Source: a virus. From it: 43,871 nucleotides of DNA. Position numbers and translations under genes: made by a program. The notes beneath the pieces are model-generated. The model did no database searches and was not told where the DNA came from. It was given only the letters and a program-made list of their open reading frames with translations. Below, piece after piece: positions 12,348 through 17,396 of this stretch. The stretch is taken from positions 1 through 43,871 of the IMG/VR virus record IMGVR_UViG_3300020147_000015; one strand, given 5' to 3'. Each line of letters starts with the position of its first letter. Position 1 is the stretch's first letter.

Positions 12348-12520
12348 CGGCGCCGGCTCTCGTCAAATCCGCGGACCTGAAGCGAATGGCCATGATCGCC
12401 AAGCGTGAAAACGTGACCGTCTGGGTTGAGATCGACGGCCGGCGCTTTGGGGTCTCCCCAGATATACAGGATATCAACAGGCAGAAAAAGGTTGATCTCC
12501 CCGATGATTTCGCCCTCTGA
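12344..12520 (+). CDS. 58-residue protein upstream of integrase
   Basis: MTAPALVKSADLKRMAMIAK followed by NVTVWVEIDGRRFGVSPDI. This small protein type is, as I recall, repeatedly found directly before integrase genes in rhizobial prophages; a DNA-binding or excisionase-like role would fit the position but cannot be shown. The ATG overlaps the preceding stop (ATGA), and its 3' end overlaps the chosen integrase start by 17 nt. Confidence 0.65.
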   Translation: MTAPALVKSADLKRMAMIAKRENVTVWVEIDGRRFGVSPDIQDINRQKKVDLPDDFAL

Positions 12521-13607
12521 TAAGGGAATGCCGAAGCCCCTTCCCAAGCACGTCACCAAGACTATCACCCGCTATGGGAAGGTGCTTCTGTATTTCCGTA
12601 TCGACAAAGGCGCTCGGGTGAGGCTCCCCGACGATCCAGACAGCCACGAATTCGATATGGCCTATGCGGCATGCCTTGCAGGGAAACCTAAGCCACGCTC
12701 CAAATCGCCCGCAGAAGCCAGTACAATGCGATGGCTGATCGAGCGGTATATGGAAAGCGGCGCGTGGGTGACACTCGCTGACGGGACCAGAAGGCAACGC
12801 TCCAACATCTTCAAGCATGTTGTCGAGCAAAACGGCGGCGTCGAGTTCGCCAATATCCTTCCCAAGCACATTAGGAACCGCATGGACAAGATGGCGGGTA
12901 CGCCCGTCCAGGCCAACAATTACCTAAAGGCCATGAGCGGGCTGTTCTCGTGGGCCGTCAAGAATGACCACCGGCGGGATAATCCCTGCGCGGGCGTTGA
13001 AAAGCTCCCGGTCAAGTCGGATGGCTTTGAGGCATGGACGATTGAGGACGCAGCCGCATTCCGGGCGAGATGGGATGAAGGAAGCATGCAGCGGCTTGCA
13101 TTCGAGCTACTGCTGCACGTTGGAAGTCGTCGGGGGGATTTGACCGATATGGGCCGGCAGCATTTGCGCGGCAATGTCCTGTCATTCAGGACGGGCAAGA
13201 CGGGTTCGGTCGTTACCGTCGAGTTGCCTCAGTCCGTCCTCGATTTGATCGGGAAGACGGAGACGAAGGGCGATGCCCTGCACTTCATCGTGACATCGCA
13301 CGGCAAGCCGTTCAGCAAGCCAGGGTTCGGGAATTGGTTTGGAGACGCGGCCCGTAAGGCGAACGTCTTTAAGAACGCCCACGGGGTGCGGAAACTGGCT
13401 GCCACGATCGCCGCCGACGAGGGCGCCACGGCTCACGAGCTTATGGCTCAATTTGGCTGGGCAAACCCGAAACAGGCGGAAGTCTACACCAGAGGGGCCG
13501 ATCGGGCGAAGCTTGGAATCAGATCTTCGAAGCGGGTTGCCGAACGGGTGAAGAACGAAACGCCCCCAAACTCGCCACCTGAAACCCCCAAACAGTCGAC
13601 AAAATAA
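12504..13607 (+). CDS. int: Tyrosine-family site-specific integrase
   Basis: 367 residues from the ATG at 12504 (AAAGG upstream); an ATG at 12528 is the alternative. N-terminal core-binding domain followed by a catalytic domain with Arg in VGSRRGDL (R209), HGVRKLAAT (H293, R296), W319 in the FGWANP box and the nucleophile Y328 in EVYTRGAD. This set is complete for a tyrosine recombinase that integrates the phage genome at an att site. An attP-like array lies at and just after its 3' end, so gene and site form one module. Confidence 0.92.
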   Translation: MISPSDKGMPKPLPKHVTKTITRYGKVLLYFRIDKGARVRLPDDPDSHEFDMAYAACLAGKPKPRSKSPAEASTMRWLIERYMESGAWVTLADGTRRQRSNIFKHVVEQNGGVEFANILPKHIRNRMDKMAGTPVQANNYLKAMSGLFSWAVKNDHRRDNPCAGVEKLPVKSDGFEAWTIEDAAAFRARWDEGSMQRLAFELLLHVGSRRGDLTDMGRQHLRGNVLSFRTGKTGSVVTVELPQSVLDLIGKTETKGDALHFIVTSHGKPFSKPGFGNWFGDAARKANVFKNAHGVRKLAATIAADEGATAHELMAQFGWANPKQAEVYTRGADRAKLGIRSSKRVAERVKNETPPNSPPETPKQSTK

Positions 13608-13961: not shown

Positions 13962-14138
13962 ATGAGGGACTTGAGCCTTAAAGCTGTAGTCAAGGGACAA
14001 TATGAGGAAGGGCTGAGGGACGCCATTAGAATCATCGAAGGTCGCTTGCCACTCTACACGGATATCGGCCAGATCAACGCGCTTCGAGAATGCATTTCAA
14101 GTATCAAAGGGGGCCTGGAGAGGATCAAGAATGAGTGA
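13962..14138 (+). CDS. 58-residue helical protein
   Basis: ATG at 13962 behind AAGGGAATGGG. MRDLSLKAVVKGQYEEGLRD, then DIGQINALRECISSIKGGLE: helical, no family recognised. It overlaps the next gene by 8 nt, so the two are probably co-translated. Confidence 0.55.
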   Translation: MRDLSLKAVVKGQYEEGLRDAIRIIEGRLPLYTDIGQINALRECISSIKGGLERIKNE

Positions 14139-14391
14139 AACACCGAAATCGGAATTCCCGATGACCGTTGAAGAGGTCATCCAACAGTTCGTCAAGCCCG
14201 AGTTTAAGGAGGTGGCATCTCTGGTCGCGAGCGTGGCTATTCTTGAAGAGCGCCAACGCAACACAGACCTCCTCCGCACCGCCACCGCCTTCATAGAAGA
14301 GCTGAAGGCCTTTGGCTATGGAGAGACGAGCGAGAAGGCTCTGCCTGGGGCGTTCGACGCATTTGTGGAAGCTGTGAATAAACTGAAATAG
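14131..14391 (+). CDS. Small helical protein before the Y RNA locus
   Basis: 86 residues. Helical segments MTVEEVIQQFVKPEFKEVAS and VASVAILEERQRNTDLLRTA. No family recognised. Ends 4 nt before an inverted repeat and 40 nt before the first Y RNA-like structure, so it may be unrelated to that system or provide read-through transcription into it. Confidence 0.6.
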   Translation: MSETPKSEFPMTVEEVIQQFVKPEFKEVASLVASVAILEERQRNTDLLRTATAFIEELKAFGYGETSEKALPGAFDAFVEAVNKLK

Positions 14392-14394
14392 ATT

Positions 14395-14424
14395 GTTGCA
14401 AATTGCAACGTGCCGTGCGATAGA
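14395..14424 (+). promoter_or_regulatory. Candidate promoter and dyad before the Y RNAs
   Basis: A perfect inverted repeat GTTGCAA-A-TTGCAAC lies at 14395-14409. Its left arm supplies a -35-like TTGCAA (14396-14401), followed after 17 bases by GATAGA (14419-14424), a weak -10. The implied start, about 14431, coincides with the 5' edge of the first Y RNA-like fold. The dyad could bind a regulator, possibly the HTH protein encoded after rsr; that link is inference. Confidence 0.4.
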
Positions 14425-14430
14425 TGATTT

Positions 14431-14504
14431 GCCAATCGTGGTGAAGGTGACGGCTACTTCTTTCTGGTAGAAACGACGCCGTTTCCGCTTGTTCCCGAAT
14501 GGTT
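14431..14504 (+). ncRNA. Y RNA-like RNA 1 (compact)
   Basis: About 74 nt. Outer stem: CCAATCG-T-G (14432-14440) pairs with C-C-CGAATGG (14494-14502), seven pairs in nine. Inner stem: ACGGC (14450-14454) with GCCGT (14478-14482), then a small hairpin loop (CTAC/GTAG). Between them lie 5' TGGTGAAGGTG and 3' CGCTTGTTCC, the region corresponding to the Ro-binding helix of Y RNAs; GAAGGU and CUUG also occur at the equivalent places in human Y RNAs. No tRNA-like part. It would bind Rsr as a ring-blocking or adaptor RNA. Confidence 0.65.
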
Positions 14505-14507
14505 CAT

Positions 14508-14653
14508 AACCGCAGGCGTGGCGTAGAGTTCGGTTACTTCGCTTTGGGAGCCAGAGGTCGCGGGTTCGAATCCCGTCATCCTGATACAGGATGTAGCTCA
14601 GTTGGATAGAGCGCTGATACGTTCCGAGTTCGCTTGTTCCCGCCTGCGGTTTT
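14508..14653 (+). ncRNA. yrlA: Y RNA-like RNA 2, YrlA type with tRNA mimic
   Basis: About 146 nt. The ends pair perfectly over 11 bp (14508-14518 with 14641-14651) and end in TTTT. The Ro-binding-type strands TGGCGTAGAG and CGCTTGTTCCCG match RNA 1. The distal part is a permuted tRNA: variable-loop AGGTC (14555-14559); T-arm GCGGG-TTCGAAT-CCCGT (14560-14576); acceptor-like 7-bp stem CATCCTG/CAGGATG closed by ATA (14577-14593); TA at positions 8-9; D-arm GCTC-AGTTGGATA-GAGC (14596-14612); and CTG/CAG at the anticodon-stem position (14614-14616 with 14552-14554). YrlA RNAs of bacterial Ro loci have this organisation. Confidence 0.78.
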
Positions 14654-14678
14654 GCCATTCGGCGCTATGGAGAAAATC

Positions 14679-15980
14679 ATGCGCCTGAATACCGCAATGA
14701 ACATCCCCCGCCAGTATACGCATGAAGGTGCGCCGGCCAAATTCATCTCGCCGGAAATGCAGCTTCGCCGCTCCGTCCTGTCCTGCCTCCTTTGGGAGAA
14801 GGAGTTCTACGAGGACGGCAAGGACATTGCTTCCCGGATCCTGGAAGCCGCCGTGACCGTTGATGCTGCAACGGTCTCCGCTCTGGCGGTAGAGGCTCGC
14901 AACATTCATGGCCTTCGCCATGTCCCGCTCCTGCTGCTCACTGACCTGATCCGCCGTGGTGGGGCTGGAGTTGCAGACACGATTGCGGACACTATCCGTC
15001 GCGCCGACGAAATGGCAGAACTCGTGTCGATCTATTGGAGGGGAGGCAAGAAGCCGCTTTCCAAGCAGATGAAGCTTGGGCTGGCAAAGGCGTTCGGGAA
15101 GTTCTCGGAATATCAGCTCGCCAAGTATGATCGCGAGGGACCGGTTCGGCTGCGCGATGTTCTCTTCCTTGCCCATCCGAAGCCGGCCGACGAGGAGCAG
15201 GCGGCGCTATTCAAGCGCGTGGCTGAGCGCCGGCTTGTGGCGCCAGATACGTGGGAGGTTTCTCTGTCGGGAGGTTCCGATAAGAAGGAAACGTTCGAGC
15301 GCCTTATTCGGGAAGGAAAGCTTGGCTACCTCGCCCTGCTTCGAAACCTTCGCAACATGATGGACGCCGGTTGCGACCGACAGCTTGTGTCCGATGCCAT
15401 CGTGGCGCGGAAAGGTGCTGAGCTTGTATTCCCGTTTCGTTATGTCGCTGCGGCCCGAGCTTGCCCGCAGTTGGAGCCGGTGATCGATCAGGCGCTCTGT
15501 GAGGCTGTCGCGTCTGGCCCTCGACTGTCCGGCGTAACTGCCGTTCTTGTCGATGTTTCCGGCTCGATGGACACCAAGTTATCTGGGAAGTCGGACCTGA
15601 CGCGCCTTGATGCCGCAGCCGCTCTCGGTTCAGTCGTGAACGGGGATATTCGGGTCTTCACTTTCTCGGAGCGCGTGGTGGAGGTGCCGCCTCGCCGGGG
15701 CATGGCTGGGGTCGATGCCGTTATCAGATCACAGCCCCATTCGGGAACCTATCTCGGAGCGGCAATCGATCTGATCAATCGGCAAGTGCCGCATGATCGG
15801 CTGATCGTCATCACGGATGAACAGTCCCATGACCGGGTGACGGACCCGATCGCAAAGAAGGCCTATATGATCAATGTTGCTTCTGCAAAGAACGGCATTG
15901 GCTATGGGAAGTGGGTCCACGTTGACGGGTTCAGCGAATCCGTTATCCGCTACATCCATGAGTCCGAGAATGAGCGGTGA
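14679..15980 (+). CDS. rsr: Ro60/Rsr protein (TROVE + von Willebrand A)
   Basis: 433 residues from the ATG at 14679 (GGAGA, 6-nt spacer); an ATG at 14667 would add four residues. The N-terminal two thirds are helical TROVE repeats (FYEDGKDIASRILEAAVTVD, EARNIHGLRHVPLLLLTDLI, KLGYLALLRNLRNMMDAG), forming the ring that binds Y RNA outside and misfolded RNA ends inside. The C-terminal vWA domain keeps a complete MIDAS: D292-x-S294-x-S296 (VDVSGSM), T357 and D380. It is about 100 residues shorter than well-studied Ro proteins. In bacteria Rsr works with exoribonucleases such as PNPase in RNA decay and rRNA maturation. Two Y RNA-like RNAs lie directly upstream, and an HTH gene overlaps its end. 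Confidence 0.93.
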   Translation: MRLNTAMNIPRQYTHEGAPAKFISPEMQLRRSVLSCLLWEKEFYEDGKDIASRILEAAVTVDAATVSALAVEARNIHGLRHVPLLLLTDLIRRGGAGVADTIADTIRRADEMAELVSIYWRGGKKPLSKQMKLGLAKAFGKFSEYQLAKYDREGPVRLRDVLFLAHPKPADEEQAALFKRVAERRLVAPDTWEVSLSGGSDKKETFERLIREGKLGYLALLRNLRNMMDAGCDRQLVSDAIVARKGAELVFPFRYVAAARACPQLEPVIDQALCEAVASGPRLSGVTAVLVDVSGSMDTKLSGKSDLTRLDAAAALGSVVNGDIRVFTFSERVVEVPPRRGMAGVDAVIRSQPHSGTYLGAAIDLINRQVPHDRLIVITDEQSHDRVTDPIAKKAYMINVASAKNGIGYGKWVHVDGFSESVIRYIHESENER

Positions 15981-16206
15981 TGAACTGAAAGAGGCCGGCA
16001 TAAGGCTTTTTGGCGAGCGCGGGTGGCAATCAGCGCTTGCTGCGCATTTGGGCGTGGATAGGACCCAGATCTGGCGCTATGTGTCGAATGATAAGGTTCC
16101 GGGACCTGTGGCTGCTGCGGTTTCATGCTGGCTGAAGTCTGGAGCGCCCGTCACTTCGGCGTCTGAAGCCACGCAATTGCCTTCAGAACATCCTCATAGA
16201 ATTTGA
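15970..16206 (+). CDS. Small HTH protein coupled to rsr
   Basis: 78 residues from the ATG at 15970, overlapping the rsr stop by 11 nt. The segment RLFGERGWQSALAAHLGVDR then TQIWRYVSNDKVPGPVAAAV is a helix-turn-helix of the kind found in small alphaproteobacterial regulators. Translational coupling to rsr suggests that it controls, or is controlled with, the Ro locus. Its 3' end runs 56 nt into the convergent minus-strand gene at 16151-16405. Confidence 0.7.
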   Translation: MSGDELKEAGIRLFGERGWQSALAAHLGVDRTQIWRYVSNDKVPGPVAAAVSCWLKSGAPVTSASEATQLPSEHPHRI

Positions 16207-16748: not shown

Positions 16749-16920
16749 CTATGGCGCTCCTTTCTCGTAGGACTTCAACGGATTTCACCAGCGAGGCTGT
16801 AGCAGCCATCTGCTTGCCTTCGGATTGGCCGATCCACTTGGCGGGGAAGAACATGAGGCCCGCGCCAACGACTGCGGCGGCGGGCAGCTTGATCACGTCG
16901 GGGATGAGGGCGAGGATCAT
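16573..16920 (-). CDS. Rz-like inner-membrane spanin
   Basis: 115 residues from the ATG at 16920, which overlaps the endolysin stop (ATGA). One N-terminal transmembrane segment (VIKLPAAAVVGAGLMFFPAK), then a periplasmic helix (AATASLVKSVEVLRERSAI, EEHRECLRRLEEAAG). Size, topology, position after the endolysin and the nested Rz1-like gene identify it as the i-spanin. The longer upstream frame to 17007 overlaps the endolysin and is not needed. Confidence 0.7.
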   Translation of the reverse strand: MILALIPDVIKLPAAAVVGAGLMFFPAKWIGQSEGKQMAATASLVKSVEVLRERSAIDAQVSSSDATAMCADFFMPDSEEHRECLRRLEEAAGDAGNSGVSHPERPPTCERHREP

Positions 16921-17396
16921 CCGGTGATCCCCTGCCTGCAGATGCGCAGCTCGTCTGCCCTGCGATTGACGAGGCCCTTCACGACCCTGCCACCTGCACG
17001 GTTCCATGCCGGGATAGCTTCACAGGCACCTTTGATGTCGCCCGCGTTTGCTCGTCGCGCCACGGTCGAGCCACAGAAGGCACGAACTCCGATGTTGTAG
17101 GAAAGCGATAGGAAGGCCACGTAGGATTTTTCTGGAATGCTGTCGGGATTGGTAAGGCAGGCCCGCATGCCAGTTTCGAACTCGATCAGCGCGTCACCGA
17201 GCATCGCCTTGCATTCTTCGACGGTGTACCGATCGCCCATCTTCACGCCCCGGGTCTCTCCGAAGCACACAGTTGGGATTCCGACCACATCTTTATAGGC
17301 GACCGTCCGGAGCCCTTCCCATGCCCCCACGATGGCAACAGCGGCGGCAGCGAGCGCGCCGGACTTCTTAAGCCTGCTCTTCGTCGTCGGCTTCAT
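16917..17396 (-). CDS. GH24 lysozyme, probable SAR endolysin
   Basis: 159 residues. A weakly hydrophobic N-terminal helix (SGALAAAAVAIVGAWEGLR) runs into the catalytic glutamate: E27, D36 and T42 (WEGLRTVAYKD...GIPT) form the E-8aa-D-5aa-T triad of phage lysozymes (glycoside hydrolase family 24). The alanine/glycine-rich first helix is typical of signal-arrest-release endolysins, which reach the periplasm via Sec and are activated when they leave the membrane. It cleaves the peptidoglycan glycan chain. Overlaps holin by 29 nt and Rz by 4 nt. Confidence 0.9.
   Translation of the reverse strand: MKPTTKSRLKKSGALAAAAVAIVGAWEGLRTVAYKDVVGIPTVCFGETRGVKMGDRYTVEECKAMLGDALIEFETGMRACLTNPDSIPEKSYVAFLSLSYNIGVRAFCGSTVARRANAGDIKGACEAIPAWNRAGGRVVKGLVNRRADELRICRQGITG

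What the first reader, a model, noticed from the sequence alone, without database searches (positions are those of the whole stretch)
14431..14653. Two paralogous RNAs keep the Ro-binding strands but swap the outer stem
The 3' strands CCGTTTCCGCTTGTTCCCG (14479-14497) and CCGAGTTCGCTTGTTCCCG (14624-14642) agree at 16 of 19 positions. The 5' strands (14439-14453 and 14519-14533) agree at 9 of 15. The outer stems are unrelated in sequence, yet each pairs with itself (7 of 9 and 11 of 11 pairs). Conserved protein-contact sequence with compensating helices is what selection on RNA structure looks like. GAAGGU and CUUG also match the equivalent strands of human Y RNAs as I remember them.
Basis: seen in the sequence. 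Interest (0 to 1): 0.85.

Follow-up and report, generated by a model that had tools for sequence, protein, structure and literature searches.

The report
Paired phage Y RNAs beside Ro60
A bacterial virus carries, just in front of its copy of the Ro60 RNA-binding protein, two small RNAs that share the Ro-binding grip, one of them built around an inside-out transfer RNA, and relatives show that such RNAs often still display a transfer-RNA anticodon loop.

Summary
Window 14428-14652 holds two tandem Y RNAs, 27 nt upstream of a Ro60/TROVE gene (14679-15980). Models built only from bacterial relatives find them at E=2.6e-11 (Y1) and 1.1e-27 (Y2). The arrangement matches the known YrlB/YrlA pair of Salmonella, so the pair itself is a new member of a known kind. 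A family-level result I did not find in the papers I could read: 88 of 205 long-loop Y RNAs keep a 5-bp/7-nt anticodon arm (U33 in 85, A34 in 2, 32 triplets), the tRNA being broken at nt 26/27, whereas classic YrlA breaks it in the anticodon loop. In the window itself that arm is ambiguous. Function is inferred: Ro tether plus tRNA-like docking module, possibly an anticodon decoy. The primary Y RNA papers were not held.

The parts
14395..14409 (.). perfect palindrome GTTGCAAATTGCAAC just upstream of Y1; candidate operator/promoter element (inferred)
   Evidence: only match to GTTGCAANTTGCAAC in the window at up to 3 mismatches, though 81 of 100 shuffles also held at least one such match; the form GTTGCA-N(1-5)-TGCAAC lies upstream of the array in 7 of 10 near relatives listed, window included
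14428..14506 (+). Y1: short Y RNA (YrlB-like), 18-nt loop
   Evidence: model R1, built from 16 bacterial Y RNAs without the window: 50.6 bits, E=2.6e-11, best of 10 matches; covariation in 47 relatives
14430..14438 (+). Y1 outer stem, 5' strand (pairs 7 of 9 with 14496-14504)
   Evidence: helix covaries across relatives
14439..14460 (+). Y1 5' Ro-binding strand: internal loop 14439-14445, inner helix 14446-14453, UACUUC
14479..14495 (+). Y1 3' Ro-binding strand: inner helix 14479-14486, internal loop GCUUGUUCC
14496..14504 (+). Y1 outer stem, 3' strand
14507..14652 (+). Y2: Y RNA with permuted tRNA-like domain (YrlA-like)
   Evidence: Rfam YrlA RF02553 54.7 bits, E=2.9e-11, 14530-14646; model R2 built from 21 bacterial Y RNAs: 113.2 bits, E=1.1e-27
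14508..14518 (+). Y2 outer stem, 5' strand (11 of 11 pairs with 14641-14651)
14519..14540 (+). Y2 5' Ro-binding strand: internal loop 14519-14525, inner helix 14526-14533, UUACUUC
14538..14554 (+). possible anticodon arm of Y2: stem 14538-14542/14550-14554, loop UUUGGGA 14543-14549, anticodon UGG (Pro) 14545-14547
   Evidence: 4 of 5 pairs; ARAGORN tRNA-Pro(tgg) after rotation; the same 3' strand can also pair 4 of 5 with 14614-14618
14560..14576 (+). T arm of the tRNA-like domain
14577..14593 (+). acceptor stem of the tRNA-like domain, 3' strand 14577-14583 before 5' strand 14587-14593, closed by AUA
   Evidence: 7 of 7 pairs with changes on both sides in 50 relatives
14596..14612 (+). D arm of the tRNA-like domain
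14624..14640 (+). Y2 3' Ro-binding strand: inner helix 14624-14631, internal loop GCUUGUUCC
14641..14651 (+). Y2 outer stem, 3' strand (in a run ending GGTTTT)
14679..15980 (+). Ro60 homologue (TROVE ring plus VWA domain)
   Evidence: Pfam TROVE 47.7 bits (cut-off 23), VWA_2 28.8 bits (cut-off 27); AlphaFold model pLDDT 86.4, its 13 Foldseek matches at E<=0.001 are all Ro/TROVE structures

Best explanation
Y1 and Y2 are a tandem pair of bacterial-type Y RNAs made by a temperate tailed phage for its own Ro60 protein. In each, a variable outer stem (needed only to pair) clamps the 5' and 3' ends, and a conserved internal loop plus an 8-bp inner helix is the Ro60 contact (inferred from conservation). 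The loop is the variable business end: short in Y1, and in Y2 a tRNA opened and closed again in circularly permuted order with its acceptor end capped. The Ro-Y2 particle would present this tRNA look-alike to proteins that recognise tRNA (an exonuclease such as PNPase, tRNA-modifying enzymes, or tRNA nucleases), tethering them to the Ro ring or occupying them during infection. Shown here: RNA structure, homology, the permuted tRNA fold, the Ro gene. Inferred: Ro binding, partner proteins, benefit to the phage.
For: Covariation of outer, inner, T, acceptor and D helices. Independent bacterial models find both RNAs. Rfam YrlA match to Y2. ARAGORN, given the 205 long loops rotated and trimmed, tRNA, against 0 of 205 in each of three shuffles; untrimmed rotation gave 113 of 205 and the loops unrotated 0 of 205. 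Y RNAs lie upstream of Ro in 152 of 161 loci with at least 600 upstream bases, two or more in 129, three or more in 65; 397 cores upstream, 8 downstream. Ro60 fold. Known precedents seen in passages: Salmonella rsr-yrlBA (PMC7790460, PMC9879122); D. radiodurans Rsr tethered by Y RNA to PNPase; YrlA as substrate of DusA and TruB (PMC8394870); strongly transcribed non-coding regions within 2 kb of an Rsr-like gene in Listeria phage CKA15 (PMC12282133).
Against: No expression or binding data for this phage. Y2 falls below Rfam's YrlA cut-off (54.7 against 69). The lowest-energy fold of Y2 keeps the T, acceptor and D arms but not the anticodon arm of either topology; its z-score depends on the ends taken (-2.29 and -0.28), and Y1's are -1.55 and -1.34. 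No tRNA-recognising partner is identified. The loci are the best-scoring Ro relatives, not a random sample, and are related to one another; the descriptor seeds came from them.
Confidence: 0.8

Rival explanations
1. RYPER-like tether: the tRNA-like loop docks PNPase (host-encoded), so that the Ro ring feeds it structured RNA and the phage redirects RNA decay or recycling.
For: Established for D. radiodurans Rsr/Y RNA (passages); Salmonella Rsr and YrlA bind PNPase (passage). The authors of the Listeria phage CKA15 paper propose the same for their phage (passage).
Against: PNPase binding was not testable here. It gives no reason why many relatives keep intact anticodon loops of 32 different triplets or why one array carries several tRNA look-alikes.
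Confidence: 0.4
2. Anticodon decoy: Y RNAs show tRNA-like anticodon loops to host anticodon nucleases or other anticodon-reading enzymes and inhibit or absorb them, protecting the tRNA pool during infection.
For: 88 of 97 modules with the T loop at the type-B distance keep a 5-bp/7-nt arm; U33 85, R37 84, A38 77 of 88; A34 only 2 of 88; 32 triplets; 1 of 88 is a stop anticodon. In 7 of 7 arrays with two such RNAs the anticodons differ (two random ones would match 7% of the time, so this is weak). CcrColossus and CcrPW carry a Y RNA 96.5% identical outside the loop but with CUG in one and UAG in the other. Hughes et al. suggest YrlA as a competitive inhibitor of a tRNA nuclease (passage); phages are known to counter tRNA-cutting defences with tRNAs (abstracts of PMC10264068 and PMC11555353).
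Against: No nuclease is named. The anticodon changes no faster than the free linker (52-55% against 37-55%), and a whole-RNA alignment gave only 17 of 62 anticodon positions differing, so diversifying selection is not shown; tRNA-like composition may be mere descent. Salmonella YrlA was not cut by the nuclease. The trait is also common in the bacterial loci (41 of 112 long loops). The window's own arm is ambiguous.
Confidence: 0.2
3. Leader of the Ro mRNA: the two structures act in cis, Ro binding its own 5' leader to regulate itself.
For: Same strand, 27 nt before the Ro start; nearest core ends a median 53.5 nt before Ro in 158 loci.
Against: Arrays of up to 7, 8 cores downstream of Ro, and a tRNA-like domain are more than a leader needs; known Y RNAs act as separate RNAs. 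Both roles could coexist.
Confidence: 0.1
4. Phage attachment site or decayed ordinary tRNA gene: the tRNA 3' half is the integrase's attP, or a broken tRNA.
For: A phage integrase (Phage_integrase family) lies at 12426-13607, and Rfam's tRNA model gives a weak native-order match at 14517-14584 (21.4 bits, cut-off 29).
Against: ARAGORN finds no tRNA in the window; both acceptor strands are present in permuted order and covary; jumbo phages CcrColossus and CcrPW carry several such modules; the modules were found with Ro in 152 of 161 loci.
Confidence: 0.02
5. Permuted tRNA gene: the domain is cut out, joined and used as a working tRNA.
For: Once rotated, many modules are complete tRNAs for ARAGORN; permuted tRNA genes exist in other organisms (recalled).
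Against: Acceptor ends are closed by short loops such as GAAA, GCAA or UUCG with no CCA noticed (read by eye), and the fixed UUC of the Ro strand forms one side of the anticodon stem (67 of 93).
Confidence: 0.03

Closest known systems
YrlA and YrlB, the Y RNAs of the Salmonella rsr-yrlBA-rtcBA operon (Rfam RF02553 for YrlA)
   Same: Tandem short and tRNA-like Y RNAs beside a Ro60 homologue (that YrlB is the short one is recalled); Ro-binding stem; permuted D, T and acceptor arms.
   Different: Phage-borne and placed before Ro; below the Rfam cut-off. Rfam's model has no anticodon hairpin (the tRNA is opened in the anticodon loop), whereas 88 of 205 long-loop relatives have an intact anticodon arm, broken at nt 26/27.
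Y RNAs of D. radiodurans (Ro-PNPase tether)
   Same: Y RNA partner of a bacterial Ro60; Ro protein of the same fold (2nvo).
   Different: No match to any other Y RNA family was listed in the Rfam scan at E<=5.
Phage Ro60 proteins (Thermus phage phiLo, crAss-like phages, Caulobacter phage CcrColossus)
   Same: TROVE proteins in phages: 89 records of 50,697 match the window's Ro; phiLo Ro60 is solved (9l5y).
   Different: The phage records I opened name no Y RNA, and several annotate Y RNAs as tRNAs.
Vertebrate Y RNAs (RF00019)
   Same: Ro-binding stem with similar GAAGGU and CUUG strands (recalled, not tested by alignment).
   Different: Not listed in the Rfam scan at E<=5; no tRNA-like domain (recalled).

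Membership tests
YrlA (RF02553) | covariance-model score at or above the curated cut-off | tested here: not met
   54.7 bits against 69, though E=2.9e-11 over the full 1-114 model
YrlA (RF02553) | T, acceptor and D arms in circularly permuted order inside a Y RNA stem | tested here: met
   (helices 4-6 paired in 100, 92.6 and 98.5% of cells)
YrlA (RF02553) | tRNA opened in the anticodon loop, no anticodon hairpin | tested here: inconclusive
   window Y2 pairs 4 of 5 either way and its MFE uses neither; 88 of 205 relatives have the hairpin, 41 fit the open type against 22 expected from swapped halves
YrlA (RF02553) | modified by tRNA enzymes (DusA, TruB) | not testable with these tools
   needs RNA; known for Salmonella (passage)
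bacterial Y RNA in general | encoded beside a Ro60 gene | tested here: met
   Ro starts 27 nt after Y2; 152 of 161 relatives alike
bacterial Y RNA in general | conserved Ro-binding stem with covarying helices | tested here: met
bacterial Y RNA in general | binds Ro60 | not testable with these tools
   no binding data
vertebrate Y_RNA (RF00019) | match to the Rfam model | tested here: not met
   not among matches at E<=5
Ro60 protein family | TROVE ring domain | tested here: met
   Pfam 47.7 bits against 23; Foldseek to Ro60 structures 9kop, 9l5y, 2nvo, 1yvp at E<=2e-11
Ro60 protein family | VWA domain with metal-site motif DxSxS | tested here: met
   VWA_2 28.8 bits against 27; DVSGS in the translation with D292, S294 and S296 invariant in 20 relatives; the motif's name is recalled
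ordinary tRNA gene | tRNA in normal order | tested here: not met
   ARAGORN 0 in the window; called tRNA-Pro(tgg) only after rotation
RYPER (Ro-Y RNA-PNPase) | tethers PNPase | not testable with these tools
   no interaction data

The most novel reading that the evidence does not exclude
Y RNAs of phages and their bacterial hosts are a modular display system: a Ro60-held frame into which whole tRNAs are inserted inside-out (at least two, probably three, break points), commonly keeping a functional-looking anticodon loop that is exchanged while the frame stays. Arrays of such RNAs with different anticodons would act as decoys or baits for enzymes that read anticodons, such as the anticodon nucleases used in anti-phage defence.
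Probability: 0.2. Interest if true: 0.88.

Novelty: new variant of a known kind. Interest (0 to 1): 0.6.

Why it matters
Bacterial Y RNAs are known from few experimentally studied cases, and what their tRNA-like part does is open. If many of them present a real anticodon loop, that part becomes a testable bait for anticodon-specific enzymes, and natural pairs that differ mainly in the anticodon (CcrColossus CUG, CcrPW UAG) exist to test it. The annotation consequence is immediate: standard tools call some of these RNAs tRNAs (27 of 203 ARAGORN calls in these loci overlap a Y RNA), so phage tRNA counts can include Y RNAs. The window's permuted module aligns across junctions of adjacent tRNA genes, which suggests how permuted tRNAs can arise.

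Tried and rejected
Rejected: attachment site, ordinary or decayed tRNA, and a working permuted tRNA gene (see rivals). Also rejected: a protein-coding reading of the minus strand, ORF 14125-14658. The matching stretch upstream of Ro has 1 to 9 stops in every reverse frame of five relatives, and the conservation is of base pairs.

Results that went against me: the first count of anticodon change between close pairs (39 of 72 against 330 of 2646 flanking positions) looked like hypervariability, but an alignment that included the loop gave 17 of 62, next to acceptor 53 of 241 and linker 33 of 162. With three pair selections that leave out the loop it was 24 of 45, 23 of 42 and 17 of 33, with the four-base linker at 22 of 60, 31 of 56 and 18 of 44. 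I therefore do not claim diversifying selection. The anticodon-arm test against swapped 3' strands is less clear-cut than the others because the UUC strand is fixed: 88 of 97 arms with at least 4 pairs against a mean of 63.5 and a maximum of 73. 27 of 85 type-B RNAs could also pair the classic way (11 expected, maximum 20). The type-A count, 41 of 81, has a swapped expectation of 22 (maximum 29). The D-loop type rests on 4 cases.

Rows dropped: 7 loci with identical Y RNA sets; Rfam at permissive threshold was run on only 9 of the 25 first loci (YrlA matches in 7 of 9, all below cut-off) because one search was too large, and at gathering threshold on 6 loci (no YrlA match); alignment A3 used 50 of 51 selected type-B RNAs (L027:1603-1747 left out), A4 used 47 of 100 short ones. 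Collections returned only the best 80 of 405 viral and 80 of 250 genome relatives.

Led nowhere: promoter and terminator scan; plasmid search apart from the S. oralis tRNA cluster.

Full report
Observation. The strands, coordinates and match counts in the finding are correct. The window is a 43,871-base virus record of a tailed phage, by its integrase temperate, with a Bet-like annealing protein, portal, major head protein and lysozyme. The Ro60 gene runs 14679-15980: Pfam TROVE and VWA_2 pass their cut-offs, and an AlphaFold model (pLDDT 86.4) has 13 matches at E<=0.001 in the PDB, all Ro/TROVE structures, led by 9kop (TROVE domain) and 9l5y (Thermus phage phiLo Ro60), with 2nvo and 1yvp among them.

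What the two RNAs are. Y2 (14507-14652) matches Rfam YrlA end to end at 54.7 bits, E=2.9e-11, below the cut-off of 69, and therefore does not appear in a standard scan. Y1 (14428-14506) matches no Rfam family at E<=5. I collected Ro relatives: 25 viral contigs with the window's protein, the best 80 viral and 80 genome loci with an alignment of 12 Ro proteins, and named phages. A descriptor seeded from these loci, iterated, gave 433 cores on the Ro strand and 0 on the other in 183 sequences, 403 distinct. Of 161 loci with at least 600 bases before Ro, 152 have at least one Y RNA there, 129 two or more, 65 three or more; the largest count is 7, in L166, and CcrColossus has 6 at the stricter cut (8 in the first scan). 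Models built only from bacterial loci (16 short and 21 tRNA-like RNAs) find Y1 and Y2 as best hits in the whole window, at E=2.6e-11 and 1.1e-27.

Structure. For 50 tRNA-like RNAs with an anticodon arm, the structure outer stem, inner helix, anticodon arm, T arm, acceptor, D arm is paired in 90.7% of cells against 65.4% in shuffles and 36-46% with partners slid by 1-3 columns; 35 of 40 pairs have changes on both sides, 11 of 11 in the outer stem and 7 of 7 in the acceptor. RNAalifold on its own predicts 36 pairs, including two G-C pairs after a bulged U at the base of the outer stem. These 50 were chosen for the anticodon arm, so that helix is not independently tested there. For 47 short RNAs, 83.0% against 58.1%, 17 of 17 pairs with changes on both sides.

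The permuted tRNA. In Y2 the order is anticodon region, variable loop, T arm, acceptor 3' strand, a 3-nt cap, acceptor 5' strand, D arm: a tRNA with its ends joined and opened elsewhere. Of 205 Y RNAs with loops of 60 to 130 nt, ARAGORN tRNAs when the loop is rotated and trimmed; shuffled loops 0 of 205 three times; loops as they stand 0 of 205. Y2 is called tRNA-Pro(UGG) most often among its calls.

Break points. Rfam's YrlA opens the tRNA in the anticodon loop (my reading of its structure line). In the relatives, 88 of 205 are opened between nt 26 and 27 and keep an anticodon arm, one strand of which is usually the UUC of the conserved UUACUUC; 41 fit the classic type (22 expected by swapping halves), 4 are opened in the D loop, 40 are unassigned and 32 lack the T-loop motif. 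In the 88 arms U33 is kept in 85, a purine at 37 in 84, A38 in 77; the triplet takes 32 forms, with A34 in 2 of 88 and one stop anticodon. Ordinary tRNAs in the same loci have A34 in 5 of 175, so the loops look like real tRNA loops and not like drifting sequence; U36 is more frequent in Y RNAs (52 of 88 against 57 of 175). By a looser rule 93 qualify; ARAGORN gives the same anticodon for 84 of 93, of 14 isotypes. In the window the arm is uncertain: 4 of 5 pairs either way, nearly equal energies, and the lowest-energy fold uses another hairpin. Near relatives carry other anticodons at the same place: GCU in L002 and L005, UGU in L004 and L008, CCG in L104.

Origin (inference). A blastn hit places Y2's module across the junction of two adjacent tRNA-Pro(UGG) genes of Streptomyces phage Wakanda (79.2% over 76 bases), and another across a tRNA-Pro/tRNA-Met junction of a Streptococcus oralis record (78.0%). 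A permuted tRNA is what one would get by framing such a junction.

Mechanism. Shown: two structured, conserved Y RNAs coupled to a Ro60 gene, one with a permuted tRNA. Inferred: Ro binds the inner stem and internal loop, the outer stem protects the ends, and the loop recruits a partner. Precedents are RYPER in D. radiodurans and the Rsr-YrlA-PNPase association in Salmonella (passages), and strongly transcribed RNAs near an Rsr-like gene in Listeria phage CKA15 (passage). The decoy idea builds on a suggestion by Hughes et al. for YrlA (passage) and on phage tRNAs that evade anticodon nucleases (abstracts). Evidence for it here is composition and turnover of anticodons only, and turnover is no higher than in the free linker.

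What is known. From memory, the abstract of Chen et al. 2014 reports Y RNAs near Ro60 in over 250 bacterial and phage species, at least one per species with a tRNA-like domain; PMC7765460 and PMC12282133 (passages) confirm that phage Y RNAs had been reported. So the pair itself is a new member of a known kind. PMC8394870 describes the YrlA domain as resembling the D, T and acceptor arms (passage). All ten searches of the paper library gave no listing whose title or abstract start spoke of anticodon arms or nt 26/27 break points in Y RNAs; the four primary papers were not held, so prior description cannot be excluded.

Noticed in passing
L027:1831-1898 (Xanthomonas phage 10KY502B), L029:2266-2340 (Brevundimonas phage Kikimora), L037:2272-2346 (Gurke), L030:1646-1713 (CcrColossus): Public records annotate Y RNAs as tRNA-Thr, tRNA-Ser, tRNA-Ser and tRNA-Gln. 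In these loci 27 of 203 native ARAGORN calls overlap a Y RNA core, and Rfam's own tRNA model passes its cut-off on two Y RNAs (L027:1831-1898, L128:1589-1659).
   Followed up: partly
window 14395-14409; L002:183, L003:2547, L006:2722, L008:1867, L041:2718, L104:3209: A palindrome GTTGCA-N-TGCAAC precedes the Y RNA array in 7 of 10 near relatives listed; possible operator of a phage regulator.
   Followed up: partly
L029:5841-6186; L020:6430-7005: Matches to the permuted tmRNA family RF04321 near the Ro locus of a Brevundimonas phage (57.7 bits, cut-off 47) and, below cut-off, in a viral contig that also has an ordinary tmRNA match.
   Followed up: no
L127:412, L157:3333, L173:3150, L183:3155: Y RNAs whose tRNA appears to be opened in the D loop, a third break point.
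   Followed up: partly
L146:800, L141:2001: Short Y RNAs whose loop is just an anticodon-arm-like hairpin (UUCGA-CUGUUAA-UCGAC; UCGA-CUGCUAC-UCGA), seen by eye.
   Followed up: no
L030:2136 and L031:2137 (CcrColossus, CcrPW): Permuted look-alike with a long variable arm, as in class II tRNAs such as tRNA-Leu (read by eye).
   Followed up: no
L184 (NZ_CP069428.1:3782-5062): A 16.8-kb linear record labelled Streptococcus oralis plasmid holds 14 tRNA genes in 1.28 kb with no listed genes there; it may be a chromosomal fragment.
   Followed up: no
window 15874-16206: ORF after Ro with a weak YdaS-like match (22.1 bits, cut-off 30), followed by a lysozyme gene on the other strand (16917-17396).
   Followed up: no
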